Below are positions 7,783 through 63,215 of a stretch of DNA of 64,000 nt, one piece after another (the first letter of the stretch is position 1; the number at the start of each line of letters is the position of its first letter). A program made the translations under genes and the position numbers. The stretch is from Aquitalea aquatica (GTDB taxonomy: Bacteria; Pseudomonadota; Gammaproteobacteria; Burkholderiales; Chromobacteriaceae): the NCBI RefSeq assembly GCF_013911085.1, contig NZ_JACERN010000033.1:1-64000 (forward strand), read 5' to 3'. The notes under the pieces are model-generated. The model saw only the letters and a program-made list of their open reading frames with translations, had not been told where the DNA came from and ran no database searches.

Positions 7783-7793
7783 CGAGAATTCTC

Positions 7794-7840
7794 CATGGCC
7801 GGGACGCGAAAACGAGTGACCGCAATGCGTCCCGGCCATG
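7794..7840 (-). promoter_or_regulatory. Expression-platform hairpin of the Mn2+ riboswitch
   Basis: A perfect 14-bp inverted repeat (arms 7794-7807 and 7827-7840, core GGCCGGGACGC) encloses a 19-nt loop. It sits between the aptamer and the Shine-Dalgarno GGAGAA, which it just touches. No T-run follows, so control of translation start is more likely than transcription termination. Confidence 0.6.
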
Positions 7841-7847
7841 CAGAGCA

Positions 7848-7955
7848 TTACGGTCAAAAGTCTCGCCAAGTCTCGGACCACGTGTGCCATGCCGGAACCG
7901 GCAAGTCTGTTGACACACGTCCCTCTCGCGCTCGGAGGGCGGCTACTCCCTAATG
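7848..7955 (-). promoter_or_regulatory. yybP-ykoY manganese riboswitch aptamer
   Basis: Read on the minus strand, the leader starts with GGGAGTAGCC and ends with GGCGAGACTTTTGACC. These correspond to the two conserved internal loops of the yybP-ykoY aptamer (GGGGAGUAG near the 5' end and GC-AGACCUUUG-C near the 3' end), with a variable GC-rich stem between. This class senses Mn2+ and commonly precedes mntP and UPF0016-type Mn2+ exporters, as here. The exact ends are approximate. Confidence 0.82.
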
Positions 7956-8137
7956 ACGGATCGCATTGTAAAGCAGCCATGCCATTTGGCAAGCCCCATT
8001 TCCGGTTTTCTGCGCGGAAACCTGCTAACAAAACCCCTGCTCCTGCCTTGCACCTCCGCGCCTAGACCTTGCCCTGTCTGCGTCGGCGCACTTGGCCCGG
8101 CTATTCTCAAGGTTTTGCCAGCCGCTCTAGGCTACCG

Positions 8138-9181
8138 TCAGCGGGCGGCCCAGGCGTTAAAACGCTGCTCCAGGTTTTCGCCATGATCCACCCAGAAACT
8201 GCTGTCAATGGCCACGCCCTGCTTCAGGTTTTGCGGTGCGGTGGGCAGGTTGGCCAGAATACCTTTGTCGATCAGGCCGGCTGCCTTGCGATGGCTTACC
8301 CCATAACTGATGCCTTTCACATACTCGGCCTGGGCGGCAGGCTGGCTGACGAAAGCCAGAAACTTGTACGCGGCATCCAGATTGGCGCTGCCCTTGGGGA
8401 TGGTCCAGTAGTCGTAATCGTAGATATTGCCGTTCCACACCATTTGCAGCTGCTTGCCACCCTCTTTCTGTGCCGCGCTGATGCGTCCGTTATAGGCGGA
8501 GCTCATCACCACATCGCCGGCCGCCAGATACTGTGCCGGCTGAGCACCGGCTTCCCACCACTGGATGTAGGGCTTGAGCTGGTCCAGCTTGGCAAAGGCG
8601 CGGTTCAGCCCAGCCGGGGTATTGAGCAGCTTGTACACATCATGTGGTGCTACGCCGTCCGCCATCAACGCGATTTCCAGTGTGTACTTGGCCCCTTTGC
8701 GCAGCGCACGCTTGCCGGGATATTTCTTCACATCCCAGAAATCAGCCCAGGAACGCGGCGCGGTCTTCAGCTTGTCGGCGTTGTAGGCCAGCACCGTACT
8801 CCAGGCATAGGCCGCCATGCCACAGGGCTGGGCCGCACCGGGCAGCAGCTCGGCCGGCTTGATGATGCGCCGGTAATCCAGTTTCTCGAACATGCCTTCG
8901 TCGCAACCACGCATCAGGTCGGGCGACTCCACATCCAGTACATCCCAGCTCACCCGCTTGCTGTCGACCATGGCGCGCACCCGGGCCATTTCGCCGTTGT
9001 AGTCTCCGCTTACCACCTTGATGCCGCTGCTGGCAGCAAAGGGTTGGTAATAGGCTTTCTGCTGGGCTTCCTTATTGGCACCGCCAAACGACACTACGGT
9101 CAGCTCGGCCGCGGACAGCACCGGGGCAAACAACAGCCCGGCATACAGGAAAACACGTGGAAAACGCATGGATGAAGGCAT
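8138..9181 (-). CDS. Periplasmic polyamine-type ABC substrate-binding protein
   Basis: This 347-residue exported protein has a signal peptide ending VLSAAE. It then shows LTVVSFGGANKEAQQKAYYQPF, typical of PotD-like (SBP_bac_8/SBP_bac_6) binding proteins for spermidine/putrescine or related cations. Other family blocks are PRSWADFWDVKKYPGKRAL and a WTIPKGSANLDAAYKFLAF segment near the C-terminus. AGGGGAT precedes the ATG at 9181. No permease or ATPase genes lie next to it, so it must share a transporter encoded elsewhere. Polyamine specificity is inferred from family and from the window's polyamine theme. Confidence 0.85.
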   Translation of the reverse strand: MPSSMRFPRVFLYAGLLFAPVLSAAELTVVSFGGANKEAQQKAYYQPFAASSGIKVVSGDYNGEMARVRAMVDSKRVSWDVLDVESPDLMRGCDEGMFEKLDYRRIIKPAELLPGAAQPCGMAAYAWSTVLAYNADKLKTAPRSWADFWDVKKYPGKRALRKGAKYTLEIALMADGVAPHDVYKLLNTPAGLNRAFAKLDQLKPYIQWWEAGAQPAQYLAAGDVVMSSAYNGRISAAQKEGGKQLQMVWNGNIYDYDYWTIPKGSANLDAAYKFLAFVSQPAAQAEYVKGISYGVSHRKAAGLIDKGILANLPTAPQNLKQGVAIDSSFWVDHGENLEQRFNAWAAR

Positions 9182-9318
9182 GACTATCCCCTGGAAGTTG
9201 CACAGCCAGGTGGGCGACTGTGTGACTTACTCTAGGGACAAGTCTGGCAATAGGTAAAATAGCTTTACCTTGTCAACTGCATCGCTTTTTACGATGCAAG
9301 AAAACGGCATGGCTTGGC

Positions 9319-10221
9319 TCAGCCCAGTCGGCTGATGCTGCGTTCGCACAGGGTGACAAAGGCCTCGGCGCGACGGGTCAGGCGCAACTCCTGTGGCCAG
9401 GCCAGCACGATATTCAAGGCTGGCACCTCCTCCACGATGGGCAGGCACACCAGCTGGTCACCGGCATAGCTCTGTGGCGTCTGCGGCCGCAGGTTCAGCA
9501 AGGCATAGCCATTACCCGCAGCCACCAGCCCGCGTACCAGTTCGAAATTGACGGTTTTGTGGCGCACACGCGCCTCCAGCCCCTGCAGGCGAAACACCGA
9601 CAGGAAATACTCGCGGCTATGTGGCAGGTCGAGCAACACCATGGGCAAAGGGGCGAGATCCTGCAAGGAAACCGCAGCCTGCCCGGCCAGCGGATGGGCG
9701 GCCGGCAGCAGCACATAAGGCAGGACGGTTTGCAATGTCTGGCGATACAGGCTGGGCGCCAGATCCAGGTCGTACAGCAAGGCCAGCTCGGTCTGGCCGC
9801 TCAGCAAAGCCTGCTGCAACTGCTCGGTATCGCCTTCATGCAGCCGCACCGAGATGTCCGGATAATCTTCACGCATGGCCGCCAGCAGGCGCGGCAGGAA
9901 GATCGGCGCGATGGTGGTAAAACACCCCAGCTCCAGATTGCCCTGCAAGGACTGGCTGAGCGCACTGGCGTGCTGGCTCAGGTCCTCGGCATGCGCCAGC
10001 AGATTGCGCGCCGCCGCGACAAAGCTTTGCCCGGCCGGTGTCAGCGAAACGCCCTTGGCATGGTGCCGGATAAAAAACTGCAGGCCAAACTGCGCCTCCA
10101 GCTGGGCAATGGCGCTGGAAATGCCTGGCTGCGAGGTGTACAGCGCATTGGCCGCTGCCGTCACGCTGCCGTGGTCGGCCACCGCCACCAGATACGCCAA
10201 TTGCCGCAGGGTGTATTGCAT
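9319..10221 (-). CDS. LysR family transcriptional regulator
   Basis: This 300-residue regulator has an N-terminal winged helix (MQYTLRQLAYLVAVADHGSV, then AANALYTSQPGISSAIAQLE) and a LysR substrate-binding domain. The start at 10221 matches the usual first residues of the family; a longer frame to 10278 is not conserved. It is divergent from argE with a 180-bp gap, the usual layout for a LysR protein controlling its neighbour. The ligand is unknown. In CysB/Cbl-like LysR proteins the YLVAVADHGSVTAAA wording is common, but I cannot place it more finely. Confidence 0.9.
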   Translation of the reverse strand: MQYTLRQLAYLVAVADHGSVTAAANALYTSQPGISSAIAQLEAQFGLQFFIRHHAKGVSLTPAGQSFVAAARNLLAHAEDLSQHASALSQSLQGNLELGCFTTIAPIFLPRLLAAMREDYPDISVRLHEGDTEQLQQALLSGQTELALLYDLDLAPSLYRQTLQTVLPYVLLPAAHPLAGQAAVSLQDLAPLPMVLLDLPHSREYFLSVFRLQGLEARVRHKTVNFELVRGLVAAGNGYALLNLRPQTPQSYAGDQLVCLPIVEEVPALNIVLAWPQELRLTRRAEAFVTLCERSISRLG

Positions 10222-46771: not shown

Positions 46772-48052
46772 TTGCACTTAGTGCATGGGCTGCCAGTGAT
46801 GCAAAAAAACTACCAAATCAAGAGTTTTGTAATGCTGACCGGTGAACGGTATTGCCTACTGATAGATAGAGAAACAGGAATGCCCCTCTACTACCCGAAT
46901 CTGTATGTGACAACGCAAGTGCGCAATAGGTCTAACTCCGTTGCCTCGATGGAGTCTGCTCTGTCTGGCATCAACGTACTTCTGAGATTTTGCGAGGAGC
47001 ACCAGGTTGATCTGGAAGGCCGCTTCATGAAGTGTGAATATTTCGCGATACATGAGCTTGACGCTATACGCGATTATTGCCAACAAAGCTTTACCAGACG
47101 GGCGGAAGATCCCCGCCGAGAAGTTATTCCGATCAATAGCAAGGGCAAGCCGACCCGAAAAACAGGACTAGCGAGTGAATACGTGCGATTGACGCACATC
47201 GCCAAATACACGGCGTGGCTGGCGACGATTCTGCTCACTGGTGAAATCGAGAGAAAGACAACACTCGATATAGCCAAGATGAAAAAGGGATTTGAGTCCC
47301 GGAGACCATCCAGCAAGGGGCGTAACCAAGCGGGGCGGGAGCAAGGGCTATCCCGAGAGCAAGAGATGGCTCTGCTTGAGGTCATTCAGCCCGGCTACGA
47401 ACACAACCCTTTCGAAGATCAGCCCACACAGATTCGCAACCAGTTACTGATCTTGCTGCTACTTTACCTCGGAATTCGGGGTGGTGAATTGCTCAACATA
47501 CGGGTGTCCGATATTGACTGGTCCAAAAACCAGATTGTCATTGCCCGTCGAGCGGATGCAAAGATAGATCCTAGACGTCGGCAGCCCCTAGTAAAAACGC
47601 TAGATCGCCGCTTGCCCATGAAAGACACGCTAGTAAGAGCGATTCACCACTACATAGTCCAGATTCGTAGCAGAGTACCCGGAGCCAAGAAGCACGACTA
47701 CCTGTTTGTGACACACAAGTCTGGCCCAACACAGGGGCAGCCGATGTCTAGATCGGCATTTCTTAAAGTGATCAAGCTGATCTCGTCTGCCACGCCAAAA
47801 CTCTCAGGGCTTCATGGGCATGAGTTGCGTCACACTTGGAACAATCGTTTCTCTGAATTAATGGATGCGAGAGATGATCCACCCACGCCAGAAGAGCAGG
47901 AGATGCAACGCTCCTATCTCCAAGGCTGGAAGCCAGGGTCAGGCACGGCAGCAATCTATACAAAACGATTTACACGTGAAAAGGCCATCGAAGCCAGTTT
48001 AAAGCTTCAAGAAGGCATGACCCGCATCCCGGAGAACCTTGAGTATGATTGA
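46772..48052 (+). CDS. Tyrosine recombinase 1 of a three-recombinase cassette
   Basis: This protein of about 426 residues has a C-terminal tyrosine recombinase catalytic domain. The first Arg is in LLYLGIRGGELLNIRV, the His-x-x-Arg box in GHELRHTWNNRF, and the nucleophile Tyr in TAAIYTKRF. The N-terminal half is a poorly conserved core-binding region. Start choice is uncertain: the frame opens at a TTG (46772), a GTG at 46781 is 10 nt from TAAGG, and an ATG lies at 46799. It is the first of four overlapping genes just past the ssb terminator. The downstream gene begins within its last codons. Confidence 0.85.
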   Translation: MHLVHGLPVMQKNYQIKSFVMLTGERYCLLIDRETGMPLYYPNLYVTTQVRNRSNSVASMESALSGINVLLRFCEEHQVDLEGRFMKCEYFAIHELDAIRDYCQQSFTRRAEDPRREVIPINSKGKPTRKTGLASEYVRLTHIAKYTAWLATILLTGEIERKTTLDIAKMKKGFESRRPSSKGRNQAGREQGLSREQEMALLEVIQPGYEHNPFEDQPTQIRNQLLILLLLYLGIRGGELLNIRVSDIDWSKNQIVIARRADAKIDPRRRQPLVKTLDRRLPMKDTLVRAIHHYIVQIRSRVPGAKKHDYLFVTHKSGPTQGQPMSRSAFLKVIKLISSATPKLSGLHGHELRHTWNNRFSELMDARDDPPTPEEQEMQRSYLQGWKPGSGTAAIYTKRFTREKAIEASLKLQEGMTRIPENLEYD

Positions 48053-49652
48053 CGCGAGCCCTAAAAGTGCTGTCCATCAATCTCATACAGAGGGGAGTCA
48101 TACCTATCCAGTTGAAGGAGAAAGCAGCAACCAGTATCAGTCTCGTGCAGGATATTGGTTCGACATTGAAAAGCCGGTCTGGAGTCTGGACAAGAACTAC
48201 AATCTGTATATTTCCAATATATATCAATTTTTACCTGATGAATCACAATACGGCTTTGTGGCTACGCTGACTCATTACGCAACTACCATGTCCGGTGCAC
48301 ATACGAGGAATATTTTTGAGTGCTTCTATATATTTCTTAAGGAGACCAAGCCTGCGCATATCGATACAGATGCGCTCATAAATTGGCGTTCAACACTAAG
48401 CCGGAATGAAGAATGGAAGCTCGGCACGATACGGGGCTTCCTCTACAAATGGTACAACCTCGGCCACCCAGGTATTAACGATGATGTCATTGATCTATTG
48501 AAAAGCTGGACGTTGAAGGGCAACATCAAAGGGGATGCGGTCAAGCGACTTGATCCCAATGAAGGACCTCTGACTGACAACGAGCTCACAGCCTTCAACG
48601 AAGGAGCGGTCCGCGCCTTTGAGCAGAATCGGATTTCCGTGGATGAGCTGGCGATCTGCCTTTTAATCAGCCATACCGGCCGCCGTCCCAAACAGATTGC
48701 TCACACTAAAATCGGTGATCTCGACGGATCGAAAACGAACAAAAAGGGTGAACCGATATTCCTCATCCACATTCCCCGGGCAAAGCAACGTGGAGAAGTC
48801 TTCCGAGACAGCTTCAAGACGTTTGCGATGTCACTCGAATTATGGACGGTACTTTGTGCACAGCGAAAAAACAGTATCGCATCAGTTGAGCAAGTCCTGG
48901 GGTATGAACTTCAAGATACAGATCGCTCGGCATTGCCTTTGTTCCCTGATTTAGCTGCGTTTGAAAGAGGCAAGCCTGTTGTTCAACTGCGCTCGCTACT
49001 TGCCACGGACCACCTACATTTGCGCACAGCACAGGTGACGGCATTCCTGAGAAAGGTAGTCAACACTGCAAAGGTAATTTCCGAACGCACGGGTCAATTA
49101 CTCGATGTCGTGGCAACACGATTTCGCTATACCAAAGGAACAAGGGCAGCTCGAGAAGGTTTTGGATTAATGGTAATTGCCGAATTGCTGGATCACACGG
49201 ATATTCGATACGCAGATGTCTATACCAAAAATGTTCCCGAGCACGCCCAGGCACTAAACAAAGCGATGGCTTTGCAGCTGGCTCCCTATGCCCAGGCATT
49301 CCAAGGAGCTCTGGTTGATCGTGAGACTGACGCAATGCGTGGTGCTGACTTGTCCAGTCGAATCAAGTTCAAAGGACAAAATATGGCTACCTGCGGGCAG
49401 TACGGATACTGTGGAGCCAACGCGCCAATTCCATGTTACACCTGTAATCACTTTCAGCCATGGCTCGATGGCCCCCATGAAGAGGTTCTTGCCAATTTGC
49501 TTTCAGAACGAGACCGCGTGCAGGAAATTACTGGCGATATGGCAATGGCTGCGGTAAACGACTGGACTATCCTCGCAGTGATTAATGTCATCCAGCGATG
49601 TGAAGCACGTCGAGCTGAGTTGGCGATGGCGGCACCGAAAGCAGATCAATGA
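48045..49652 (+). CDS. Tyrosine recombinase 2 with C-terminal Cys cluster
   Basis: This 535-residue protein has a recombinase domain. SHTGRRPKQIAHTKIGDLD holds the first Arg, ATRFRYTKGTRAAREGF the second box, and ELLDHTDIRYADVYTKN carries His and Tyr. The C-terminal segment CGQYGYCGANAPIPCYTCNH has five Cys and may bind zinc. ATG 48045 overlaps the stop of recombinase 1 by 8 bp, and GGAG lies 10 nt upstream. Overlap at both ends means the three recombinases are made together. Normally one recombinase suffices, so joint action is implied. Confidence 0.85.
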   Translation: MIDASPKSAVHQSHTEGSHTYPVEGESSNQYQSRAGYWFDIEKPVWSLDKNYNLYISNIYQFLPDESQYGFVATLTHYATTMSGAHTRNIFECFYIFLKETKPAHIDTDALINWRSTLSRNEEWKLGTIRGFLYKWYNLGHPGINDDVIDLLKSWTLKGNIKGDAVKRLDPNEGPLTDNELTAFNEGAVRAFEQNRISVDELAICLLISHTGRRPKQIAHTKIGDLDGSKTNKKGEPIFLIHIPRAKQRGEVFRDSFKTFAMSLELWTVLCAQRKNSIASVEQVLGYELQDTDRSALPLFPDLAAFERGKPVVQLRSLLATDHLHLRTAQVTAFLRKVVNTAKVISERTGQLLDVVATRFRYTKGTRAAREGFGLMVIAELLDHTDIRYADVYTKNVPEHAQALNKAMALQLAPYAQAFQGALVDRETDAMRGADLSSRIKFKGQNMATCGQYGYCGANAPIPCYTCNHFQPWLDGPHEEVLANLLSERDRVQEITGDMAMAAVNDWTILAVINVIQRCEARRAELAMAAPKADQ

Positions 49653-51694
49653 TGGCTGATCTAAGGCATTTCTCGTCAAAGTCAGAGCTGTCCGCATCTG
49701 AAAATCTCGCTGAGTTCATCCGGATGTGCAGAGATGCTCTGACTGTTTTTGGTGTCGACCTATGTTGGAACGACACGAGTTGGCCAAAAGCGGCTAATTT
49801 CACCAAACTTGGCGTTCCTAGTGAAGGATTTCAAGCCTCTGACCGACTGGACGATGCGTTCATAGATTTTGCCAAAGCGTACTTTCGATACCAGCAAGGC
49901 CATCATCCAACAGTCACCAAGAATGAGTCTAAAGCACTGCGGGTGATTGAGGCTGCGTTGCTGAAAACAATGGGGGGAGCAAAGCTTGCAGGACTTGACT
50001 TCGCCATTCTTGATGAGGCCGTTGTTCTTGCAATGGGGCATTACTCCCCTATGGCAGCCTATCACTGCGGACGAGAACTGCAAAGGCTGGCCCTTTTCGT
50101 GTCTGAGAAGCACCTGATTCCGTCTGACTTGAGCACGTGGAAGAGCCCCATCAAGAAGCCCCCAGACATCACCATCCAAACAGGTGCAAAAGCAAAGGCA
50201 ATTCAGGAAAAAAAAATGCCAAGCCAGGAAGCTTTGAACGCTTTGGCAGAAATCTTTGCCAACGATCCTACTGGCCCGAAAGACATTTTCACTACAAGCA
50301 CATTTGCCATGACTATGTGCGCACCGATGCGAATCTCCGAAATACTGGATTTACCGGCCGACTGCGAGGTTGAAGAAAAGGACTCAAAAGGCGTGGTTCA
50401 ATACGGATGGCGCTTCTACTCGGCCAAAGGTTACGAGGGGGACATCAAGTGGATACCTGAGATCATGGTTCCTGTTGCCAAGAAGGCATTGAGTCGAATT
50501 CGTATGCTGACAGAAAGTTCGAGAAAGCTGGCCGAGTGGGTTGAGAACTGTCCGGGTAAACCTTATCGGCACACTGAATGCCCAGATGTCGCTGATGATG
50601 AGCTGCTCACAGTATTCCAAGCATGTGCATTTCTAGGGTTAGCACGAGATAGCCGGAGATTCTGCACTGGTAGCCTTAGAGGTGCAAAGCTTGAAGCAAA
50701 GGATGGTGTTCATACGCTCAATAGCCTATGGAAATACGTGCTAGCTCGTCAGCCCAAAGGGTTCCCTTGGCTGAATCAGGAGAAAAAGATCAAATACAGC
50801 AATGCGCTGTTTTGTATGTCCCGCAACCTAATTGGAGACCAACGCGGGACAAGCCCCGTGATTCTCTGGGCACCAACGAGTAATGTCTTCAACAACAACC
50901 TAAGTCCGCGTGAGTCATTACAAGGCAGCAATCATCAATCTATCTTTGACCGTCACGGATACAAAGCTAGCAATGGTAGTTCCCTAAAGCTGACCTCCCA
51001 CCAGTCACGCCATCTACTTAATACGCTAGCCAATCGTGGTGGTCTTACACAAGAGCAACTTGCCAAGTGGGCTGGGCGAGCCGACCCAAAGCAGAACCGC
51101 GTCTATAACCACATGAGTGAATGGGAAATGGTAGCCAAGGCCGAAGCGCTGGATACCTCTCTCACGCTCTTTGGCCCCAAAGGGGAAGTGAGCCTACACG
51201 TCCCTGTGTCTACGCAGGAAATCAATCTGATGGAGAGAGGCGCGGTACATGTCAGTTTATGGGGTGTGTGCAGCCACGACTTCATCATGTCGCCGTGTGA
51301 AAAGTTTCGCGATTGCCTCAACTGCGAAGAACACGTGTGCATCAAAGGACAGGGAAAGGATAATGTCGAGCGACTGGTGCGTATCAAGATGCGGCTGTCT
51401 CAAGTTGAAAAGGATTACACAGAGGCACAGGAAGCCGTAAACAATGGCTATTCAGGCGCTGACCGCTGGTATGAGTACCACCAGAAAACCGTTGAGCAAC
51501 TCAGGCAACTCATTGAAATACTGGAAAGCCCTCAGATTCCAGAAGGGGCGCAGATCAAGTTGCGCGATGGCAAAGATTTTAATCACCTGCGCAGGGTAAT
51601 CAGAGCCAAGGCCATGGAGGCAGTTGAAGGGAAAATGCCTGACGCCACGCTACTTTCCGAGATGTCCCGTTTGTTGGATGGCCGTCATGGCTAA
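49649..51694 (+). CDS. Tyrosine recombinase 3 (large) with C-terminal Cys cluster
   Basis: This 681-residue protein is the largest of the set. The recombinase boxes are TMCAPMRISEILDLPADC (first Arg), LTSHQSRHLLNTLAN (His-x-x-Arg), EQLAKWAGRADPKQNRVYNH (Trp in place of the second His, and Tyr). The C-terminal part contains WGVCSHDFIMSPCEKFRDC followed by LNCEEHVC, a likely zinc site, and a coiled coil. ATG 49649 overlaps the previous stop (ATGA). Size and position resemble TnpB of Tn554-like elements; the similarity is structural, not verified by alignment. Confidence 0.84.
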   Translation: MMADLRHFSSKSELSASENLAEFIRMCRDALTVFGVDLCWNDTSWPKAANFTKLGVPSEGFQASDRLDDAFIDFAKAYFRYQQGHHPTVTKNESKALRVIEAALLKTMGGAKLAGLDFAILDEAVVLAMGHYSPMAAYHCGRELQRLALFVSEKHLIPSDLSTWKSPIKKPPDITIQTGAKAKAIQEKKMPSQEALNALAEIFANDPTGPKDIFTTSTFAMTMCAPMRISEILDLPADCEVEEKDSKGVVQYGWRFYSAKGYEGDIKWIPEIMVPVAKKALSRIRMLTESSRKLAEWVENCPGKPYRHTECPDVADDELLTVFQACAFLGLARDSRRFCTGSLRGAKLEAKDGVHTLNSLWKYVLARQPKGFPWLNQEKKIKYSNALFCMSRNLIGDQRGTSPVILWAPTSNVFNNNLSPRESLQGSNHQSIFDRHGYKASNGSSLKLTSHQSRHLLNTLANRGGLTQEQLAKWAGRADPKQNRVYNHMSEWEMVAKAEALDTSLTLFGPKGEVSLHVPVSTQEINLMERGAVHVSLWGVCSHDFIMSPCEKFRDCLNCEEHVCIKGQGKDNVERLVRIKMRLSQVEKDYTEAQEAVNNGYSGADRWYEYHQKTVEQLRQLIEILESPQIPEGAQIKLRDGKDFNHLRRVIRAKAMEAVEGKMPDATLLSEMSRLLDGRHG

Positions 51695-52685: not shown

Positions 52686-53411
52686 TTGAGCTTCGCTGCT
52701 GACATCCTAGCCGATACCAGTCGCGGGTTAAGCGGCAATGAAGTCGTAAAAGCGTTTAATGCCTACGCTGTCGAACACAACGTCAACATTCCTCACTCTA
52801 CATATCCGTTCGAGGCACAAAACAAAAGAACTGCACTGCTAGATAATCTAAAGTGCTTTCCCCCTTCCCTTCAATTCAAGATCATTAGAGAATTGTGTGA
52901 TCACCGGACGTTCATCAACAAGCAATACGATGAATTAAAATCGTTAAAGGTAAAGTTAGTTTCCCAATTCGCACACCTCGCACCCAAAGACGAGTTTTCT
53001 AAACTTAACGAAACACTCACTGAGGAAACTCGCCATTGGCTCGACGGATTCCCGAATGCGCTAGAACTATACTTACAAGCAATTCACAAATACAAGCATG
53101 GAGTTTTCAGCAGAAACCTCCTTGATGATCTCCGGCTCAGCTTGGAACTCCTCCTGAAGAGCATTTTCAAGAACGATAAGTCTCTTGAAAATCAGCTCAG
53201 CAATGTCGGTAGATTCGTCAGTGATGCCGGCAGTTCAAAAGAGTTTTCAAATATGCTCTCAAAACTAATCGACTACTACGCGAAGTACCAAAACACGTAC
53301 ATCAAACACGACGACGCTGTAGTAGAAGAAGAAATTGAGTTCGTATTCGAAATTTCATCATCTTTCATGCGTCATATAATTCGGCTCCATGCAAAATCGC
53401 CAAGCCTCTAA
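52686..53411 (+). CDS. Helical protein, HEPN/Abi_C-like C-terminus (unknown)
   Basis: This protein of about 241 residues starts at a TTG (52686), with in-frame open codons upstream to 52650; the real start is uncertain. It is all-helical. The last third (LRLSLELLLKSIF ... YQNTYIKHDDAV ... EIEFVFEISSSFMRHIIRL) resembles the abortive-infection C-terminal/HEPN pattern, in which a helix with K-H-G/D is followed by a long helix. Here KHDD replaces the usual KHG. The N-terminal part has no recognisable domain. The gene is AT-rich, island-type, and directly precedes a membrane protein gene by 56 bp. Confidence 0.7.
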   Translation: MSFAADILADTSRGLSGNEVVKAFNAYAVEHNVNIPHSTYPFEAQNKRTALLDNLKCFPPSLQFKIIRELCDHRTFINKQYDELKSLKVKLVSQFAHLAPKDEFSKLNETLTEETRHWLDGFPNALELYLQAIHKYKHGVFSRNLLDDLRLSLELLLKSIFKNDKSLENQLSNVGRFVSDAGSSKEFSNMLSKLIDYYAKYQNTYIKHDDAVVEEEIEFVFEISSSFMRHIIRLHAKSPSL

Positions 53412-54370: not shown

Positions 54371-54647
54371 CTCATGTCTTTTCTTTGTCTAAAAGGCAAT
54401 GATACAAATACAACAATATCAACACCAAGCATGAGCCATGCTTATTTTTTATATGAGCAAGTTCATACCTATGTTGAGTATGCGCGCGAACTTCTCCATT
54501 AATTCGCACTTCAAAACCGGCATACCTGCGCACCTAAATGCCATCACCATCATGCACTTCAAATCCGCAATGCATTCGCGTGCAATACCACCAAAGAGGT
54601 CAGTCAGCAATGAAAAAAGTAATGGCCGATTCGACGTCCCCCCACTT

Positions 54648-55511
54648 TCAGTAGCAGAGGGCTTTAGAGTCCGGGCTTAATTTACCTGATTTCTCAGCAA
54701 GTGATTCGGCATAGGCCGCCGGCGTCAAACCACCCAGTGCTTTCTTCGGCCTTTCATTGTTGTATTCCCTTCGCCAGGCTTCGATAACAACCTGGGCGTG
54801 GCGCAGGCTGGTGAACCAGTGTTCGTTCAGGCACTCATCCCGGAAACGTCCGTTAAAGGATTCGATATAAGCGTTCTGATTGGGCTTGCCCGGCTCAATC
54901 AGAAAGAGTTGAACCCCACGGGCGTGTGCCCAGCTCAACATCGCACGGCTGCAGAACTCCTTGCCGTTATCGGTCCGGATGGCTTTGGGCAAGCCACGGG
55001 TCTTCGCCAACTGGTCGAGGACGCGCGTCAGATGCAGGCCTCCCATCGCCCGCTCCGGAACAATGGCGACTGCTTCATGCGTGGCATCATCGACCACTGT
55101 CAGATTCTTGATGACACGCCCCTCTGCCGTCCGGTCGAACACAAAGTCCATCGACCAGACCTGATTGGCCGCCAAAGGACGAGCCAGTGGGTGACGGTCT
55201 GCCACGGGGATTTTCTTGCGCTTGCGCCGGCGAATTTGCAGACCTGCCTCGGCATAGAGTCGATCTACCCGCTTGTGATTGACCAGCATGCCGCTCTGTC
55301 GCAGCTTCAAATAGATCATGCCGGCCCCATAGCGTCGGTGCCGTTGCGCGAGCGCGATGATCTGCGCTTTCAAGGCGGCATTTCGGTCAGTGGCGGGCTG
55401 GTAGCGGTATGAGCTGGGGCTCATGTCGGCCAGACGTAGCGATCGACGCTCGCTGAGCCCTTTGCCCACCAAATGGCGCACCAGCTCCCGCCGTGACGGT
55501 GCGCTTACCAC
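54648..55511 (-). CDS. IS3-family transposase OrfB (DDE integrase domain)
   Basis: This 287-residue retrovirus-type integrase has a helix-turn-helix-like start ([20 protein letters not shown]), HTH_21 region ([16 protein letters not shown]), and rve catalytic core. DDE residues are seen in [13 protein letters not shown] (first Asp), [11 protein letters not shown] (second Asp) and [17 protein letters not shown] (Glu). In the intact element it is normally made as an OrfAB fusion by -1 frameshifting; its GTG start at 55511 lies at the slippery site. Confidence 0.93.
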
Positions 55512-55774
55512 TTTTTTCGCAGGGCCTCTTTGGCAATCTCGTTCTCGAGCATGGTCTCGGCCAGGAGCTTCTTCAGCCGTGCGTTCTCAGTTTCCAGCTC
55601 CTTGAGACGCTTGGCCTCGGAGACATTCATGCCGCCGAATTTGTTGCGCCAGAGGTAATAGCTGGCTTCCGAGAAGGCGTATTTGCGGCACAACTGTGCA
55701 ACGGGCATGCCGGCTTCTGCCTCGCGCAGGAAGCCGATGATCTGTTCTTCGGTGAATCGTTTCTTCATGTCCAA
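55505..55774 (-). CDS. IS3-family transposase OrfA
   Basis: This 89-residue protein has a helix-turn-helix ([40 protein letters not shown]) and a leucine-zipper tail ([20 protein letters not shown]). Near its end, codons AAA AAG form the heptamer A-AAA-AAG (complement of 55511-55517), the classic -1 slip site leading into OrfB. Confidence 0.92.
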
Positions 55775-55940
55775 TCTCCGTGTGGGGTTGATTGGACTCT
55801 AAAGTCAGGTGCTACTCAATACTGGGGGGACGTCGGATTTACACAGAAATCGCGACACCCTCTTTCTGGCTAAGTAACCTTGCATAGGTGACCAGCACCC
55901 GTCACACCATCAGCTAAAAAGACAGGCCAACGACAAAGGA

Positions 55941-55966
55941 AAATGACCTCTCCCGCAGGGGGAGAA
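55941..55966 (-). terminator. Probable terminator of the helicase operon
   Basis: On the minus strand TCTCCC pairs with GGGAGA with a short loop, followed by GGTCATTTTCC. It lies 30 bp beyond the stop of the 498-residue gene. Confidence 0.4.
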
Positions 55967-55995
55967 GCCATTGAATTGCATAGAAAAAAGACGAT

Positions 55996-57492
55996 TCAGA
56001 TTTCAAGGCCTAGTGCTTGCATCCATGATTTACCTAACAAGCTCGCCACATTGTCATTATTATCCTGCGACCAAAGTACCTCTGGATTGCCTCGATGTTG
56101 AAGCCTGTGATTCAGGAATGACTCAACCCTTTTCAACCGCTCGGGGTCATGGGTGAGGTAACCAATTGGTACGGTTACTGCACTTTCCTGGCTCGGCTGG
56201 AAGTGATATTGCACCACGGCCAGTTGACCGGGAATGAGAAATACCTCTACTTTGTCCTGCAGATCCTGCCCCTTAAAACCCAGACCATTTGGAATGCGAG
56301 AGTGGTAAGCCTTGCGTAGTCGATAAATATCATTCACATCATCGGCAGGTAGCAACGCTGTGATTTTTCCACGAGCCTTTCGCTCTTCACTCAATTGTTT
56401 AGCTACTTTCCCACAAAATTCGGTCAGTAGCGCGCTGTTTGCAGCCCACAGCGGGACAGAACTAGACAGCCACAAGGCATTGTGGCTCACCCCTTCCTCC
56501 CAGTTTTTTGCCAGTTCTTGAAGAGTTCTGGTGATGGTGATTCGGTTATTATCCGCGTAGATAGGGCCAATCATCGCTCTTGTATTCTGATTGTCATATC
56601 CAGTTTTGCGTAGGTGGTGATCCATCAGCCAACGGTTAATATCTAAACCATTCCCATCAACATAACGATTCAACACTATGTCGTAGAAGGCCCTGCAGAA
56701 TTCTGTCAGAGACAGGCCTCCGGTTGAGAGCTTAATCCCACTAAGATAATCGGAAATGCGCGATTCGAGCTCCATGCTCAACGGGCGCTGTCGAATATCG
56801 CCGACCTTCTCGGAAGCCCGCTTGATGACCTGAACATCTCCCGTCGATGACGGCAGTAGCCAGATATCGATATCCACAGGTATCTGCACCGGCCTGCCAA
56901 TTTCACAGGCCCCGACTTTGTAGAGGCGCTTGCGCTTAGAGTCCCGATCTTGCTGGCGAGCAGTATCGAGATACGCACGGTACTGGCTGCCAAATGTCTC
57001 CGCTACCTGGTTGGTGCTCAAGCTCTTGTGCTCATGCGGGATGGGTATTTCGTAGAGGCCAAATCGACTGCTGTTGTAGCGGGATTTGGGCATGACTGAA
57101 AGAGTAAGTAATTCGATTACCGGCTCTTCAATACACTCCTCGTACTTAGTCAGGCTGGCTGCCACATTAGGATTGCCCTTGGTACGATCAAGCAGCATTG
57201 GCGAAGGGGCCAGATGGCCATCGTTGCTGTAGACCGCGAGCTTGTTGTGAACCAGGGTCTCGACCAAGACTTCGACTTCGCGTTTGGACAAACCGAAGTA
57301 CTCTTGAATATCGCCTGGCAGCACTTCTTGTAGCGCCAGCAGCAAGCGGCAGGTGTACTCTTCAACGACCGGTAGGGAGACTTCTTTCGTCCAGCCGCAA
57401 TTCACGTGGTACGTCTGCGCAGGCACCAATAGAGAAATTGTATTGCACAACCGCAGACCTGAGGGATCAACTACTTCGAATTCTTCATGCAT
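55996..57492 (-). CDS. Partner of the NERD-kinase-helicase protein (MkoB-like candidate)
   Basis: This 498-residue protein is coded immediately after the helicase with an 8-bp overlap, so both are made together. Residues about 50-90 form a winged-helix-like unit (LPGDIQEYFGLSKREVEVLV, NKLAVYSNDGHLAPS). The rest is mixed helix and strand (VDIDIWLLPSSTGDVQVIKR) with no catalytic motif that I recognise. In Mokosh type I anti-phage systems a kinase-helicase protein is followed by a second protein of unknown fold; position and order suggest this is the equivalent. This identity is inferred from context, not sequence. Confidence 0.65.
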   Translation of the reverse strand: MHEEFEVVDPSGLRLCNTISLLVPAQTYHVNCGWTKEVSLPVVEEYTCRLLLALQEVLPGDIQEYFGLSKREVEVLVETLVHNKLAVYSNDGHLAPSPMLLDRTKGNPNVAASLTKYEECIEEPVIELLTLSVMPKSRYNSSRFGLYEIPIPHEHKSLSTNQVAETFGSQYRAYLDTARQQDRDSKRKRLYKVGACEIGRPVQIPVDIDIWLLPSSTGDVQVIKRASEKVGDIRQRPLSMELESRISDYLSGIKLSTGGLSLTEFCRAFYDIVLNRYVDGNGLDINRWLMDHHLRKTGYDNQNTRAMIGPIYADNNRITITRTLQELAKNWEEGVSHNALWLSSSVPLWAANSALLTEFCGKVAKQLSEERKARGKITALLPADDVNDIYRLRKAYHSRIPNGLGFKGQDLQDKVEVFLIPGQLAVVQYHFQPSQESAVTVPIGYLTHDPERLKRVESFLNHRLQHRGNPEVLWSQDNNDNVASLLGKSWMQALGLEI

Positions 57493-60400
57493 GGGATTTG
57501 CCCTCGATCACGCTGGTTCCATCAACGATTTCGTAGCTCTTAAATTTCGCCCGGTGTTTGTCATTTATGTAACTGAGCACATCCCCTAGGGCAGAGGAAT
57601 GATTTGCGGCGCGCCACATACGTTGGGCACCAATGATAACCAACCTCTCCTGAGCTCGTGACAAGGCAACATTAATCCGTGAGGGGCTGACCAGAAAACC
57701 TTGTAAGCCGTGGTCGTTGTTTCTGACCAAGCTCAAGATGATGATTTTGTTCTCCTGCCCCTGATAGGAATCCACGGTATCAATTTTGATGAGGTTTCGA
57801 ATCTGTGCAGCCCATTCTGCGCGGCTCAGTTCCTCTTCTAGAAGCCGCTTCTGAGCGCTGTACATTGTGATGATCCCTACTGGATAGGGATGTTTGTCAC
57901 TCTTCTCCGCCTTTAGCTTCTCAAGGTGCTCCGGACGTGCGAGTTGCTTAATGAGATGCAAACAAACTTGGAGCTCATGCTGGTTAAGCAGTACGCCCTT
58001 ACGCGGCTCATCTTCCATAACTGCACGCTCACCGCTGCCGCTATCGATCCAGGTGACCGGGGTGCACAGGGGATATGGCAAATCCGCATACCAGTCGGCA
58101 GCCTTCTTACGAGAGCTCTTAAGGGCACCTTGGTAGAAGCAATGGGAAACGACATCACCGATTGGTTCTATCATCCTGTACTGAGTGTCAAAGGTGATGC
58201 CATTATTGACCAAGAAGGCTCGCTCAAAATCGGTACGAGTGGCCTCGCGCTCATCAATAGAGAGTCTGCGGCACACGGCTCGCACATGCTTTGTGTCATA
58301 CAGTGGCGGGAGCTGTTTATGGTCACCCACCAGTAGGACTCGTCGAGCACATTGCAGTGCAATCATGAGCTCGGAGGCCTGGGCTCTTCCCGCCTCATCT
58401 ACGATTACCCAGTCAAATTCAAGCTCATCGATATGCAACCCGCCTGCACCAATACCAACAAGGGTGCCACAGACTAACTGTGAGGTCTTGACTAGGAATT
58501 TGTCGTAGTTAGCTCCGCCTGAGGCTAGTACATCAATCCAATCCTGGCTGATGTCGATCAGGTGGTTGAGCCGCTGCAACGCCAATTGGTTAGTGACCCC
58601 ATGGCTGCGCGCGACCAGGGTGGAAAGAGTATTCCAGAAGTCTGGATCCAAGGCACTTGGCAGGTTGAAGTCATAGCCTCGGGTTTCCAAGTTGCGCTCA
58701 AGGATTTCCAAACACTCCTTAATTTTCTCTGCAAAGGAGGCTGCAACTGTCTCCCGCTCGCTAGGGTCGTGATAGTGTTTGGTCGCGCTCTCATGCTGCT
58801 GATTGGCCAGAGCACGGATGCGCTGGAGCAGCGGGCCAATGCTGCGATGCAATTTGGCCAACTCTTCGACTAGGGGCTGACTGAGCATAAGACGCGAGGC
58901 AAGAGCATTGATGCGCTTTTCGTACTCGCGCTGAAACTTGTAGCGGATTTGGCGCTGGATCGAGCTAGAGTGGCACTGCAGTAGTTTTTCATCAATGGCT
59001 GACTCATGGCCAAGACGCACTACGCTTAGTGGCGTACTGAGGTGCATGCATAGCTCCCTAGTTTTGATGGCCACCGTGTCTACCGATGTGTGGGACTGAC
59101 CGACCAGCAAGATATTGTTAGCTAGGCCGTTTTCGAACAAATAATGAATAAATTTGCTCACAAAGGCTGTCTTGCCGGTGCCCGGAGGACCCTGTAGGAC
59201 ACTGATAGGGCCTTCTGAAATAGCTCGTTGGAACGCCTCTATCTGACGCGGATTGAGACGCTCGGACTCACTGTCATAACGATCGCGAATCTTGGCCTCA
59301 TCAGGTTTGGCCGCAACCGCCCGGAGCATTGGTTCACTACTGCAGTCGAAGTAGCCTGGAAGACTATTAATGCGTGATTCGCCTATTAGCACCCGGTTCA
59401 TGGCCCGTTCTCGGCGAGCGCGAGAGGCATGGCTACGCTTGGATTCGAAAATCAGCTCGGCACCCGGAATCAGCTTCTGACGGATTGATCGCATACCCGG
59501 AGCAACCACTCTGACAGCTAGCATGTCCGCATCGCTTTCTTCTGTCACCACATAGCCGAAGGAGCGACTTTCCCCTTCAAAATAGATCCCGACCTCATCC
59601 TCCTCACCGAGTAGTTCCAGCAGTTCTCCCTCTTCAACTTCACACGGAATCAGCAGATTACCGCCCTCGCTTTCCTGAATCTCACCCGACAGGATTTCAA
59701 CCCTTCGACGCTGCTCACCTTCTGTCTCCAGAAAAGCTTGCCAGATGGCACTGGGGCGAATTCTGCCCTTTATGTCATCGATGAATGAGGAGGGTGTCTT
59801 CTCGTCTTCAACCGGTGTTAGTAGAGAGACCACCGCGTCGATGCTGGTGATGAACTCGATCAAGTGGTCAGAACATTTGGTCGTCGGCAGGCCACGAACC
59901 ACTTTCACCGGTCGAATAAAGGTAAATTCAGCTTTGTTGCTGGCCGAGACATAATCAGTCATGGATGCATCACGCAAGCCAAGGTTCTCAATTGCGCGTG
60001 CGTTTGGATCAAAATCAAAGCTTAGCAGCCGATCACGACCGGTGATACGGCAGAACAGCATGCCTGGTTTTTTGCGAGAAGGCTCGACTTCAAAGTAATA
60101 AGGCAGTTCCTCAGGCTGAAGTAATTGCTCCTGCTGCGGAAATTGGAAGCTCTGGCAGGTGAATACCAGAGCTTCCTGCGTTTCTACTTCGGGTGAGCCA
60201 TAGGTTCCAAGCAAACTCTTTAGGCTATCTCGCAAAGGCTCTATGGCAACTGGAACACCATGCGGTTGTTGCTCGCCTCGGTTAAGTTCTTCGACAACCG
60301 AAGGTGGGGCTTCCTTTCCGAGAAGCTCCTTAACTATCTTATAAACAGCGAAGCGGTCACGGCCAAAGCTATCTGTCGAGGTGGGATTGACAGGGCCATA

Positions 60401-62437
60401 TTCGACATTGTACGGGTCGCTGGAGTCGCCAAAATCCAAGGCGTCGATAAGCATGAGTGCAAGTTCACACGGGTTCTCCGCACCAACAGAGGATTTCACC
60501 AAGATGTTTGCGGGGTGAAGGTCCCCGTGGGCGAATTGCTGGCCGTGCAGATTTTGCACAACATTACACAGCGCAATACAAGCATTGAGGCGAGACTTAG
60601 TATCGGTCAGCTTCTGGGTAAAATCAGACCAACCTTGCCCTTCTTCGAACTGGGTCACAACAAACAGCCCCCTCCCACCACTGAACATCCCATAGGTTAA
60701 TAGTGATGGAAGTGGTAGTTCACCCACCTGGGTCTGCTCGATTCGCTTACGCATCCGCAGAATTCGCCGGTTCATCCCTGGTGATTTTGGGTCCACCTCG
60801 GCCTTCTGCCAGAATTTGAATAGAGCCTCCTGCCCTTCAAACACACATCGATAGGCAATTTTCTCGCCAAACATGTTCGGTTGAGTACCAGACGCTGCAG
60901 GGAACAGTTGGGTCATGGCGAAGGGGCTCCAATCATTTTTGATGAAGTCACCCTTAGTAATCTCCTGTAAGACCTCTTGGGTGTCGTCGTAGTGTAGGGC
61001 CTGCCCCAGTGTGATCGTATTGAACTCAGCCAGCATGACTAAGGCATTTTCGAACCGCCCCTGCTGCTCAATATCCAAGGCTCGTTCAAAGAATCCATCA
61101 AGTTTGCTGTCAAATGGATCGTTTTCGACCTCCTGCCAAATGTATACCCCATCTTCACGTTGCAATCGCACGTCATGAAAGCAGATCTGGTGTGCGACTA
61201 AGGCCAGCAGATAGACGTCTCTCGCAAAAGGGCTGAGGACTTCACCCGAAGATCCATACACATCTTCTGGAAGCAAAGTGTCACTACTACGCAATTTTTC
61301 GCTTAGATCCTTGACTGTGCCTTTCTCTGGAATGAACGCGGCGTGGTAACCCGACGTTAAGATGATATTGTGGTCGGCTGAATACCAGAGGTTTTGTGTG
61401 TCAATGTCGCGATGGGCTATCCCCATAGTATGTAGTTCGGCAAAAGGAGAGAGGAGCGCTCGCACCAAATCAAGCCGTTGTTCTGTACTCCATTTAGCAC
61501 CATAGAGGTTAATATGCTCCTCTAGTCGGCGGGTATTCTTCCGCAGCTCATAGAGCTCGATACTGTCATTATTGATGTCCTCTTCGACAAGAGGTGCTAT
61601 AGGTCGCAGAAGGAATTGCTCAAGTGGACTATTGGTTGAAACGGCTGTCCGGTAAAGGTGCTCTTCACGCATGACCACCTTGCGCCAAGTTTCATCATCA
61701 CGGAATTTCAAGCCAAGAATGGCCAAGTCCCAGCGGCGCATCATCGCCAGTCGATTGGCTTGGTCCTTATGACTGGAAGGGTATTCTGAAAATAATTGCT
61801 GTCCATGAACCCGATCTGGATGCGATGAGGCTACATAGTCCATAAATTTGAAGTCTGCGGGTTGAACACGAACCCCACGAAAGAAATCGTCAAAAGCTTG
61901 TTTGCACCTAGGGGAAGTAGGGCGATCCCGACGCTTGTCTTTGAAGAAGTCGAATTTTTGACTTACTGTAATTCGAGAGTAAGCCTCTTGTTCGCGGATT
62001 GTCAGAAACTCTTGAAGGGTATGAACATACCGTCGCTCTGAGGTAGGTAGGTATTCAGGCGTTGCCGATCCACACAGCACAACATGCGCTTCAACGCTGG
62101 GATAGTAGCCCAATTTATGAGCTACCTCTGTCTTGAGAATATTCATCAACCGTAATGCTTGATTACGCTTTACGTCATAAGGGCTTTTGCTACGGTATTT
62201 GTCATTGATATACCAGTTACCATCGTAGCTGTTGAGTCTTCCGCTCCACTCCTTGAGTTCAACCACCAACACCCGGTCATGGGTGATGATGATAAGGTCG
62301 AATTCCATCGACCCTTGGGTATCTGTTAAGACCACAGATGCGTAGGCAAACCATACCCCACTGAAATGTTCCTGCATTAGGGAGAGAGCATTAGTTTCGC
62401 TCTTGTGAAGACCATTCCCTCTGACGACGATGTCCAT
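57485..62437 (-). CDS. NERD - kinase-like - kinase-like - SF1 helicase fusion (Mokosh type I-like)
   Basis: From ATG 62437 the protein has 1650 residues. An N-terminal NERD nuclease-like domain (about 10-100) shows MEFDLII...VVELKEW, with Asp47, Glu60 and Lys62 as catalytic-type residues. A first kinase-like domain (about 240-470) has HRD (AHRDIDTQNLWY) but no DFG. A second (about 500-715) has HGD (FAHGDLHPANILV) and LIDALDFG. A C-terminal superfamily 1 helicase (COG1112-like) has Walker A QGPPGTGKTAF near 1085, DEAGRAQASE, DHKQLPP, SYQGQENKII and INVALSRAQERL. Frames to 62503 start inside a mobile element, so I prefer 62437. It resembles MkoA of Mokosh; NERD is an addition. Confidence 0.8.
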   Translation of the reverse strand: MDIVVRGNGLHKSETNALSLMQEHFSGVWFAYASVVLTDTQGSMEFDLIIITHDRVLVVELKEWSGRLNSYDGNWYINDKYRSKSPYDVKRNQALRLMNILKTEVAHKLGYYPSVEAHVVLCGSATPEYLPTSERRYVHTLQEFLTIREQEAYSRITVSQKFDFFKDKRRDRPTSPRCKQAFDDFFRGVRVQPADFKFMDYVASSHPDRVHGQQLFSEYPSSHKDQANRLAMMRRWDLAILGLKFRDDETWRKVVMREEHLYRTAVSTNSPLEQFLLRPIAPLVEEDINNDSIELYELRKNTRRLEEHINLYGAKWSTEQRLDLVRALLSPFAELHTMGIAHRDIDTQNLWYSADHNIILTSGYHAAFIPEKGTVKDLSEKLRSSDTLLPEDVYGSSGEVLSPFARDVYLLALVAHQICFHDVRLQREDGVYIWQEVENDPFDSKLDGFFERALDIEQQGRFENALVMLAEFNTITLGQALHYDDTQEVLQEITKGDFIKNDWSPFAMTQLFPAASGTQPNMFGEKIAYRCVFEGQEALFKFWQKAEVDPKSPGMNRRILRMRKRIEQTQVGELPLPSLLTYGMFSGGRGLFVVTQFEEGQGWSDFTQKLTDTKSRLNACIALCNVVQNLHGQQFAHGDLHPANILVKSSVGAENPCELALMLIDALDFGDSSDPYNVEYGPVNPTSTDSFGRDRFAVYKIVKELLGKEAPPSVVEELNRGEQQPHGVPVAIEPLRDSLKSLLGTYGSPEVETQEALVFTCQSFQFPQQEQLLQPEELPYYFEVEPSRKKPGMLFCRITGRDRLLSFDFDPNARAIENLGLRDASMTDYVSASNKAEFTFIRPVKVVRGLPTTKCSDHLIEFITSIDAVVSLLTPVEDEKTPSSFIDDIKGRIRPSAIWQAFLETEGEQRRRVEILSGEIQESEGGNLLIPCEVEEGELLELLGEEDEVGIYFEGESRSFGYVVTEESDADMLAVRVVAPGMRSIRQKLIPGAELIFESKRSHASRARRERAMNRVLIGESRINSLPGYFDCSSEPMLRAVAAKPDEAKIRDRYDSESERLNPRQIEAFQRAISEGPISVLQGPPGTGKTAFVSKFIHYLFENGLANNILLVGQSHTSVDTVAIKTRELCMHLSTPLSVVRLGHESAIDEKLLQCHSSSIQRQIRYKFQREYEKRINALASRLMLSQPLVEELAKLHRSIGPLLQRIRALANQQHESATKHYHDPSERETVAASFAEKIKECLEILERNLETRGYDFNLPSALDPDFWNTLSTLVARSHGVTNQLALQRLNHLIDISQDWIDVLASGGANYDKFLVKTSQLVCGTLVGIGAGGLHIDELEFDWVIVDEAGRAQASELMIALQCARRVLLVGDHKQLPPLYDTKHVRAVCRRLSIDEREATRTDFERAFLVNNGITFDTQYRMIEPIGDVVSHCFYQGALKSSRKKAADWYADLPYPLCTPVTWIDSGSGERAVMEDEPRKGVLLNQHELQVCLHLIKQLARPEHLEKLKAEKSDKHPYPVGIITMYSAQKRLLEEELSRAEWAAQIRNLIKIDTVDSYQGQENKIIILSLVRNNDHGLQGFLVSPSRINVALSRAQERLVIIGAQRMWRAANHSSALGDVLSYINDKHRAKFKSYEIVDGTSVIEGKSHA

Positions 62438-62462
62438 GCGGCTTTCTTTCTGAATGAGTCTA

Positions 62463-62605
62463 AGAACCTGTTCACGATCTGTTGCACGGTGGCGATACAG
62501 CATTGAAAACCACTTCGAAAATGCTCATGTACCACGTGTACATTCCGCTTTCTCAGCCGTTTCCCTCTTGTCTCGCTCTTGCTCGCGTGATCGCGAACAG
62601 GCTCT
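62463..62605. mobile_element. MITE-like 143-bp element at the 5' end of the helicase gene
   Basis: Imperfect 18-bp inverted repeats (AGAACCTGTTCACGATC at 62463 and its partner ending AACAGGCTCT at 62605, 15 of 18 identical) flank about 105 bp. No transposase fits inside. Such CCTGTTC(A/G)CGATC ends are known to me from IS5-type elements. The left arm runs into the extended frame of the helicase gene. Confidence 0.55.
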
Positions 62606-63215
62606 AGGGTGTACAGGTGCGGCACCTGCGGTGGCAGCACTGCAACATGCCATGTGCAACTTATTCTATATTTTGTCATGAAAATTGCGGCGCAGTCAGT
62701 TGTATTGCTCAATCCAATCACTGGGGCCGTTGAAGGAATGTGGGGGGCGGCGGCGTAGTGCAGATCAGAGGGAGGCCGGTCTCGCCTTCTAGGGGGGGGG
62801 CAGCTAACACGCCGAGCTCGACGTGTGTGAGATGTTTGTGGTCTTGGGTTAGGTAGCGTCGGCATTGGTTATATGCATTTGCAACCTGCAGCTCTATATG
62901 TCATAAGCATTAGTGCCAATGATGGAGACTAGATGAAGATGAACGCGCTACTCAATACTGGGGGGACGTCGGTAACACCCAGATATCAATAACTACTTTA
63001 TTCACACAAGCTTCCGTAAAGTCTCTCCTAAGTTATCTGTCTACAATGAATCGATTTGAGCTGCTCATGGCAGTTCGTCTCATGGATCTCACCAAATGGA
63101 CGATCACTCACTATGAGGAAGAGGACTGCTACTAACTAGAAGTCGCGCCTTTCTTTTTGCCACTAATCATAGGATTTCAATAAACATTGAATATACTATA
63201 TTGCTGCATAAGTCA
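62606..63215. other. Gene-poor stretch with homopolymer and IS terminus copy
   Basis: About 610 bp without a supported gene. It contains a run of nine Gs (62792-62800), a copy of the IS terminus (62947-62972), and a 29-codon frame at 63046-63135 that I do not accept. Promoters of the helicase operon may lie at the left side. Confidence 0.5.
62947..62972 (+). repeat. Solitary 26-bp copy of the IS3-family element's right terminus
   Basis: The 26 bases at 62947-62972 are identical to those at 55811-55836, which form the orfA-proximal (right-hand) end of the intact element. The two copies are in the same orientation, 7.1 kb apart. No transposase sequence adjoins this copy. Confidence 0.85.

What the first reader, a model, noticed from the sequence alone, without database searches (positions are those of the whole stretch)
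55996..62437. Mokosh-like defence operon with a fused NERD nuclease-like domain
A 1650-residue protein (NERD, two kinase-like domains, SF1 helicase) overlaps by 8 bp a 498-residue partner, on AT-rich DNA in an integrase-bearing island. A kinase plus COG1112-type helicase with a partner gene is the plan of Mokosh type I anti-phage systems. As I recall that family, MkoA has kinase and helicase but not NERD. The NERD domain carries apparent catalytic residues, so the protein could combine sensing, signalling, unwinding and cutting of nucleic acid. It may be a distinct subtype.
Basis: partly seen in the sequence, partly recalled or inferred. Interest (0 to 1): 0.82.

Follow-up and report, generated by a model that had tools for sequence, protein, structure and literature searches.

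The report
Mokosh type I anti-phage operon
This is a copy of a known two-gene bacterial anti-phage system (Mokosh type I); the nuclease-like domain that looked new is a standard part of one version of that system.

Summary
The genes are real and at the stated coordinates. MkoA (57485-62437, minus) matches PADLOC model PDLC03921 along its length, NERD included (1317.7 bits); the partner (55996-57492) matches MkoB model PDLC03923 (258 bits). The premise for novelty, that MkoA lacks NERD, is wrong for this version: a 2023 review table lists NERD for Mokosh type I, and 19 of 19 loci compared, window included, carry NERD, 17 in one frame with MkoA. Asp47/Glu60/Lys62 are in all 18 NERDs aligned. Kinase 1 looks like a pseudokinase, kinase 2 intact, the helicase Upf1-like. 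By-product: of 15 NERD-less MkoA loci, the partner carries HKD (phospholipase D) motifs in 13, whereas 0 of 19 MkoB of the NERD type do. NERD and PLD look like alternative nucleases on a shared core; one locus (L117) shows neither, against a strict rule. Whether this is already in print I could not check (original Mokosh paper not held). The block is mobile: 97% identical DNA lies in Vogesella aquatica with different flanks. Known system, new member.

The parts
57485..62437 (-). mkoA: 1650-aa NERD / pseudokinase / kinase / SF1 helicase protein
   Evidence: ORF, translation; PADLOC PDLC03921 1317.7 bits, 1-1639 of protein vs 1-1599 of 1607
62075..62404 (-). NERD nuclease domain, residues 12-121; Asp47, Glu60, Lys62
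   Evidence: Pfam PF08378 E 2.2e-12; D47/E60/K62 invariant in 15 of 15 aligned, window included, and in 18 of 18 NERDs
60998..61741 (-). kinase 1, about residues 233-480; HRD kept, no DFG Asp: likely pseudokinase
   Evidence: residue 362, where I place the DFG Asp, is Ser in 18 and Thr in 1 of 19 MkoA
60218..60925 (-). kinase 2, about residues 505-740; HGD with Asp639, Asn644, Asp665 kept: likely active
   Evidence: Pfam Pkinase E 3.3e-7, 30.4 bits against cut-off 31.7; D639/N644 in 18 of 19, D665 in 19 of 19 MkoA
59288..60217 (-). fast-evolving middle region, residues 741-1050
   Evidence: in PADLOC only MkoA PDLC03921 matches this piece (80.5 bits); least conserved of six regions against 14 of 18 other loci (tie in L057; residues 122-232 lower in L053, L054, L056)
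57623..59257 (-). Upf1-like SF1 helicase, residues 1061-1605; Walker A GPPGTGKT
   Evidence: Pfam AAA_11/AAA_12; family profile matches Nam7/Upf1 chains in the PDB, best E 4.3e-60
55996..57492 (-). mkoB: 498-aa partner, 8-bp overlap with mkoA; no HKD motif
   Evidence: PADLOC PDLC03923 E 3.7e-77; MkoB directly follows MkoA in all 19 loci compared
54632..55835 (-). IS3-family insertion sequence just downstream of mkoB, 4-bp repeat GATT; not part of the system
   Evidence: absent from the otherwise 97% identical Vogesella block; rve and HTH_Tnp_1 genes

Best explanation
It is a Mokosh type I anti-phage operon of the NERD version. Shown by sequence: MkoA joins a NERD nuclease domain with intact PD-(D/E)XK-type residues, a pseudokinase, a kinase with intact catalytic residues, a fast-evolving middle region and a Upf1-like SF1 helicase; MkoB is its usual partner, and its first 120 or so residues are shared with the MkoB of the other version. 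Inferred: the helicase with MkoB recognises and translocates on foreign nucleic acid, the kinase pair gates the response, and the NERD is the nuclease effector that cuts DNA or RNA once licensed. In the sister version the nuclease seems to be a phospholipase D domain on MkoB instead.
For: Full-length MkoA and MkoB model matches. All 15 MkoA and all 17 MkoB scanned, window included, match PDLC03921 and PDLC03923. MkoB directly follows MkoA in 19 of 19 loci. NERD residues invariant. Kinase 1 without DFG Asp, kinase 2 with it. Upf1-like helicase. NERD in 19 of 19 loci of this version with HKD in 0 of 19 MkoB; NERD in 0 of 15 NERD-less loci with HKD in 13 of 15 partners. Same NERD, inactive kinase, active kinase order reported for PglW and some DndF (PMC12839542 and PMC10853773, passages). 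Found on plasmids, in a phage record and inside a BREX locus.
Against: No biochemical or phage data here. MkoB could not be modelled (mean pLDDT 29.9), so its role is inferred; helix-turn-helix matches in it are weak and seen in few members (2 of 17 each, none in the window's own MkoB). L068 has lost the kinase 2 catalytic residues, so the kinase may be dispensable. L117, a NERD-less locus, has no HKD motif either, so a visible nuclease is not always present in the wider family. PMC11291487 (passage) says Mokosh degrades viral transcripts, while a review table (PMC12926258, passage) lists the mechanism as unknown.
Confidence: 0.7

Rival explanations
1. A new Mokosh subtype made by a recent fusion of a NERD domain to MkoA.
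For: The other PADLOC MkoA model (PDLC03920) is not among the matches of the NERD fragment.
Against: PDLC03921 includes NERD; 19 of 19 loci, down to about 25% identity in MkoA, carry it; NERD is already listed for Mokosh type I.
Confidence: 0.03
2. A solo PglW- or MAD6-like kinase-nuclease of a BREX or MADS system rather than Mokosh.
For: Residues 7-479 match MAD6 (101 bits) and 13-352 match PglW (71 bits).
Against: Both far below the NCBIfam cut-offs (460 and 990); the MkoA match is full-length; no BREX or MADS gene among the 9 neighbouring ORFs scanned.
Confidence: 0.02
3. Mokosh, but the NERD is not the effector: it only binds nucleic acid, and the kinase arrests or kills the cell by phosphorylating proteins.
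For: Kinase 2 residues kept in 18 of 19 MkoA; the review table gives N/A for a tested NERD function; L117 shows a NERD-less locus without HKD motif.
Against: The three NERD residues do not vary in 18 sequences while kinase 2 is lost in one; the exchange with a PLD-type partner fits a cutting role.
Confidence: 0.25

Closest known systems
Mokosh type I, NERD version (PADLOC PDLC03921 MkoA + PDLC03923 MkoB)
   Same: Full-length match of both proteins, gene order and overlap
   Different: Nothing of note; 98.5% identical in MkoA to the Vogesella copy, 54-61% to the nearest Pseudomonas plasmid copies
Mokosh type I, PLD version (PDLC03920 MkoA + PDLC03922 MkoB)
   Same: Upf1-like helicase half; N-terminal part of MkoB (hhalign 90.1% with isolated halves, 61.0% with whole alignments)
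   Different: No NERD (0 of 15), no H[RG]D kinase motif in 13 of 13 MkoA scanned by a simple pattern, HKD motifs in the partner (13 of 15); MkoA 1163-1260 aa where in one frame
PglW of BREX type 2 and NERD-type DndF
   Same: NERD, then inactive kinase, then active kinase (PMC12839542, PMC10853773, passages)
   Different: Other C-terminal halves by those passages (wHTH and inactive STAND in PglW, P-loop kinase in DndF)
MAD6 of MADS
   Same: Match over NERD and kinase 1, residues 7-479 (101 bits)
   Different: Far below the family cut-off of 460; the rest of MkoA is not matched

Membership tests
Mokosh type I, NERD version | MkoA: full-length match to PDLC03921 | tested here: met
   1317.7 bits, 1-1639 vs 1-1599/1607
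Mokosh type I, NERD version | MkoB: match to PDLC03923 in the adjacent gene | tested here: met
   258.2 bits, 13-470 vs 8-443/454; 8-bp overlap
Mokosh type I, NERD version | NERD domain with catalytic Asp/Glu/Lys | tested here: met
Mokosh type I, NERD version | Kinase with catalytic residues and SF1 helicase with Walker A/B | tested here: met
   D639, N644, D665, K1089, D1347, E1348
Mokosh type I, NERD version | Protection against phage | not testable with these tools
   needs a plating assay
Mokosh type I, PLD version | HKD motif (PLD nuclease) in MkoB | tested here: not met
   no HxKxxxxD in the window's MkoB nor in the 18 other MkoB of the NERD type
BREX type 2 (PglW) | PglW above the family cut-off | tested here: not met
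   71.3 bits against cut-off 990, residues 13-352 only
MADS (MAD6) | MAD6 above the family cut-off | tested here: not met
   101.2 bits against cut-off 460

The most novel reading that the evidence does not exclude
Mokosh type I exists in two versions that use interchangeable nucleases on a shared helicase and MkoB-N-terminal core: NERD fused to MkoA, together with a pseudokinase/kinase pair, or PLD fused to MkoB. The window is the NERD version, in which MkoA itself carries nuclease, kinase and translocase, using the same NERD-pseudokinase-kinase cassette as PglW and DndF.
Probability: 0.5. Interest if true: 0.45.

Novelty: new member of a known kind. Interest (0 to 1): 0.28.

Why it matters
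The comparison also gives a simple test of what does the cutting in Mokosh, since NERD on MkoA and HKD motifs on MkoB never occurred together in the 34 loci compared (19 NERD-type, 15 NERD-less), and it ties Mokosh to BREX PglW and to DndF through one shared cassette.

Tried and rejected
MkoB fold: AlphaFold with two near-identical sequences gave mean pLDDT 29.9 and was discarded. A degenerate PLD in the C-terminal half of the window's MkoB, which I suspected by eye, was not supported by profile comparison (hhalign 0.2%). The idea that the three recombinase-like genes (46772-51694) are the same trio that flanks the Mokosh block on pSY153-MDR was dropped: similar gene order, no blastp match at 1e-3, only marginal ones up to E 10 (best 0.008). 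Relatives in IMG/VR: a scan with the MkoA alignment gave 24 loci, none matched before residue 990, not used; four scans with MkoB proteins of other loci found none. A scan of genome contigs with the window's MkoB found one relative.

Counting basis. 19 NERD-type loci: the window; Vogesella; all 5 other genomes with a strong MkoB match; and 12 plasmid loci that I picked for diversity from 324 records with a match to MkoA or 95 to MkoB. The phage record L070 matches the window's MkoA and MkoB exactly as L069 does and is not counted. The MkoA model scan used 15 of these 19 (L053, L057, L059, L061 left out), the MkoB scan 17 of 19 (L057, L059 left out). 15 NERD-less loci: 2 genomes found by PDLC03922, 1 genome (L117) that alone of the 11 other genomes hit matched PDLC03920 along its length, and 12 plasmids, that is 12 of the 13 records with at least 80% coverage (H118, a second record of the organism of H117, left out). 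L116 and L118-L123 were fetched and screened but not counted: a contig fragment, or helicase-only matches with other gene content. Loci were found with queries of one version or the other, so hybrids with both nucleases or neither could be under-counted, and loci are related, not independent.

Papers: Mokosh with NERD is held by one paper; NERD, kinase, helicase and MkoA together by none. The original Mokosh paper (Millman et al. 2022, recalled) is not held.
Full report
Observation. Two minus-strand genes overlap by 8 bases: 57485-62437 (1650 aa from the ATG at 62437; an upstream ATG would give 1672) and 55996-57492 (498 aa). Pfam finds NERD (residues 12-121), a kinase-like stretch (582-650) and AAA_11/AAA_12 helicase domains (1061-1605); the partner has no Pfam match up to E 1.

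Identity. PADLOC's MkoA model PDLC03921 matches residues 1-1639 against positions 1-1599 of 1607 with 1317.7 bits, and MkoB model PDLC03923 matches the partner with 258.2 bits. Cut into five pieces, each matches PDLC03921 in order: NERD 114.5 bits, kinase 1 195.8, kinase 2 111.8, middle region 80.5, helicase 706 (residues 122-221 were in no piece). The second MkoA model (PDLC03920, 1112 positions) matches both kinase pieces and the helicase piece, not the NERD piece. A review (PMC10952713; part 1 of 2 of section 7 read, with Table 1) lists PF08378 NERD for Mokosh type I and a PLD-like domain for Mokosh types I and II.

Relatives. tblastn finds 96 of 72,556 plasmid records where one place covers at least 80% of MkoA, and 88 for MkoB. 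In a sample of 398 genomes of the phylum, 6, the window's own included, hold a strong MkoB match (E below 1e-50; 13 at E 0.001 or better). I compared 19 loci including the window: MkoB directly follows MkoA in all. NERD is in one open frame with MkoA in 17 of 19; in L061 it is a separate gene directly upstream, and in L053 it lies in an upstream, slightly overlapping frame. Asp47, Glu60 and Lys62 are in all 18 NERDs aligned; the 19th (L053), read from its ORF translation, shows the same motif by eye.

Anatomy. Kinase 1 keeps HRD's His342 and Asp344 in 19 of 19, but the catalytic-loop Asn in only 6 of 19 (the window's among them), and the place where I expect the DFG Asp reads Ser (18) or Thr (1): a pseudokinase by these signs. 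Kinase 2 keeps Asp639 and Asn644 in 18 of 19 and Asp665 in 19 of 19; L068 has lost the first two. Walker A and B residues are invariant. The family profile is closest to Nam7/Upf1, Sen1, Dna2 and Smubp-2 chains in the PDB over the helicase. The order NERD, inactive kinase, active kinase is described for PglW of BREX type 2 and for some DndF (PMC12839542 and PMC10853773, passages).

Nuclease exchange. The other MkoB model, PDLC03922 (610 positions), matches 16 of 17 NERD-type MkoB at E 0.001 (the window's own is not listed for it), while its positions from about 260 on match many other proteins, also in the E. coli control, as a PLD domain would (my inference). I therefore compared NERD-less MkoA loci: 3 genomes and 12 plasmids. 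NERD was found in 0 of 15. The next gene has HKD-type motifs in 13 of 15: two in 11 (one of L128's has Asn in place of Asp), one in L114 and in L135, which is short. The two exceptions: L124's 356-aa partner resembles PLD-type MkoB over positions 6-313 and ends before the first HKD; L117's 581-aa partner resembles PLD-type MkoB (E 4.1e-18) but has no HKD motif, so that locus shows neither nuclease. Among the plasmid loci with annotation, leaving out L124, the partner is called phospholipase D-like or phosphatidylserine synthase in 9 of 10 and hypothetical in 1 (L134 has no annotation). By contrast 0 of 19 MkoB of the NERD type has HxKxxxxD. The N-terminal parts of the two MkoB kinds are related by profile comparison (hhalign 90.1%, E 1.6e-6 for isolated halves; 61.0%, E 8.1e-5 for whole alignments; crossed-half controls 0.1%), the C-terminal parts are not (0.2%). 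This supports a shared core with alternative nucleases, with L117 against a strict rule; the limits of the sample are under Tried and rejected.

Setting. The block 55836-62831 is 96.9% identical, and 54475-54631 90.5%, to one stretch of a contig of a genome of the same family and another genus. I take it to be Vogesella aquatica from a named contig of the same length whose MkoB is 99% identical to the window's. No further match was found in the 40 kb compared, and a TniQ/TnsD gene lies about 3 kb from the block there. The window's IS3-family element sits inside this block with a 4-bp repeat and is absent there. In Polaromonas the pair lies between pglX and pglZ of a BREX locus. These fit a mobile defence cargo.

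Mechanism. Shown: domains and conserved residues. Inferred: nucleic-acid recognition and translocation by helicase plus MkoB, kinase gating, NERD cutting. PMC10286901 (table passage) puts Mokosh in the row for functional phage proteins such as DNA polymerase, single-strand binding protein, helicase or terminase in its table of phage counter-strategies. I give this model 0.7.

Verdict. A new member of a known system. Interest is low for the find itself and moderate for the nuclease-exchange pattern, whose novelty I could not check against the original paper.

Noticed in passing
window 52686-53411 (+): 241-aa protein matching PADLOC candidate defence family PDC-S32 (254.7 bits), near the Mokosh block; a search for papers naming PDC-S32 returned none.
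   Followed up: partly
window 46772-51694 (+): Three overlapping genes with tyrosine-recombinase similarity (one clear, two below the Pfam cut-off), followed by a 158-aa ORF. A trio in the same relative orientation lies next to Mokosh on pSY153-MDR but is not similar at blastp 1e-3.
   Followed up: partly
window 54632-55835: IS3-family element inserted downstream of mkoB with GATT repeats; about 71-78% identical DNA in 15 Xanthomonas plasmid records, some annotated IS1389.
   Followed up: yes
window 62947-62972: 26 bases identical to 55811-55836 (25 of them the right end of that IS) lie upstream of mkoA; no longer match to the IS was reported there.
   Followed up: no
L097 about 2300-9500: In the Vogesella contig the Mokosh block is bracketed by 13-base inverted repeats, seen by eye in the printed ends, and lies near a TniQ/TnsD gene.
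   Followed up: no
L058 5259-5876: A Pseudomonas amygdali plasmid carries a separate NERD gene just upstream of a NERD-containing mkoA; it is 46% identical to the window's MkoA residues 1-191.
   Followed up: no
L070: A Mokosh pair lies in the record of Pseudomonas phage vB_PaeS-D14H beside integrase genes.
   Followed up: no
L068 (Acinetobacter pittii plasmid): MkoA relative whose kinase 2 has lost the HxD and Asn catalytic residues.
   Followed up: no
L117 (G688:C54): NERD-less MkoA (1260 aa) whose PLD-like partner (581 aa) has no HKD motif: neither nuclease visible.
   Followed up: partly
window 63216 to beyond the end: 575-aa protein with weak TPR matches running past the window end.
   Followed up: no
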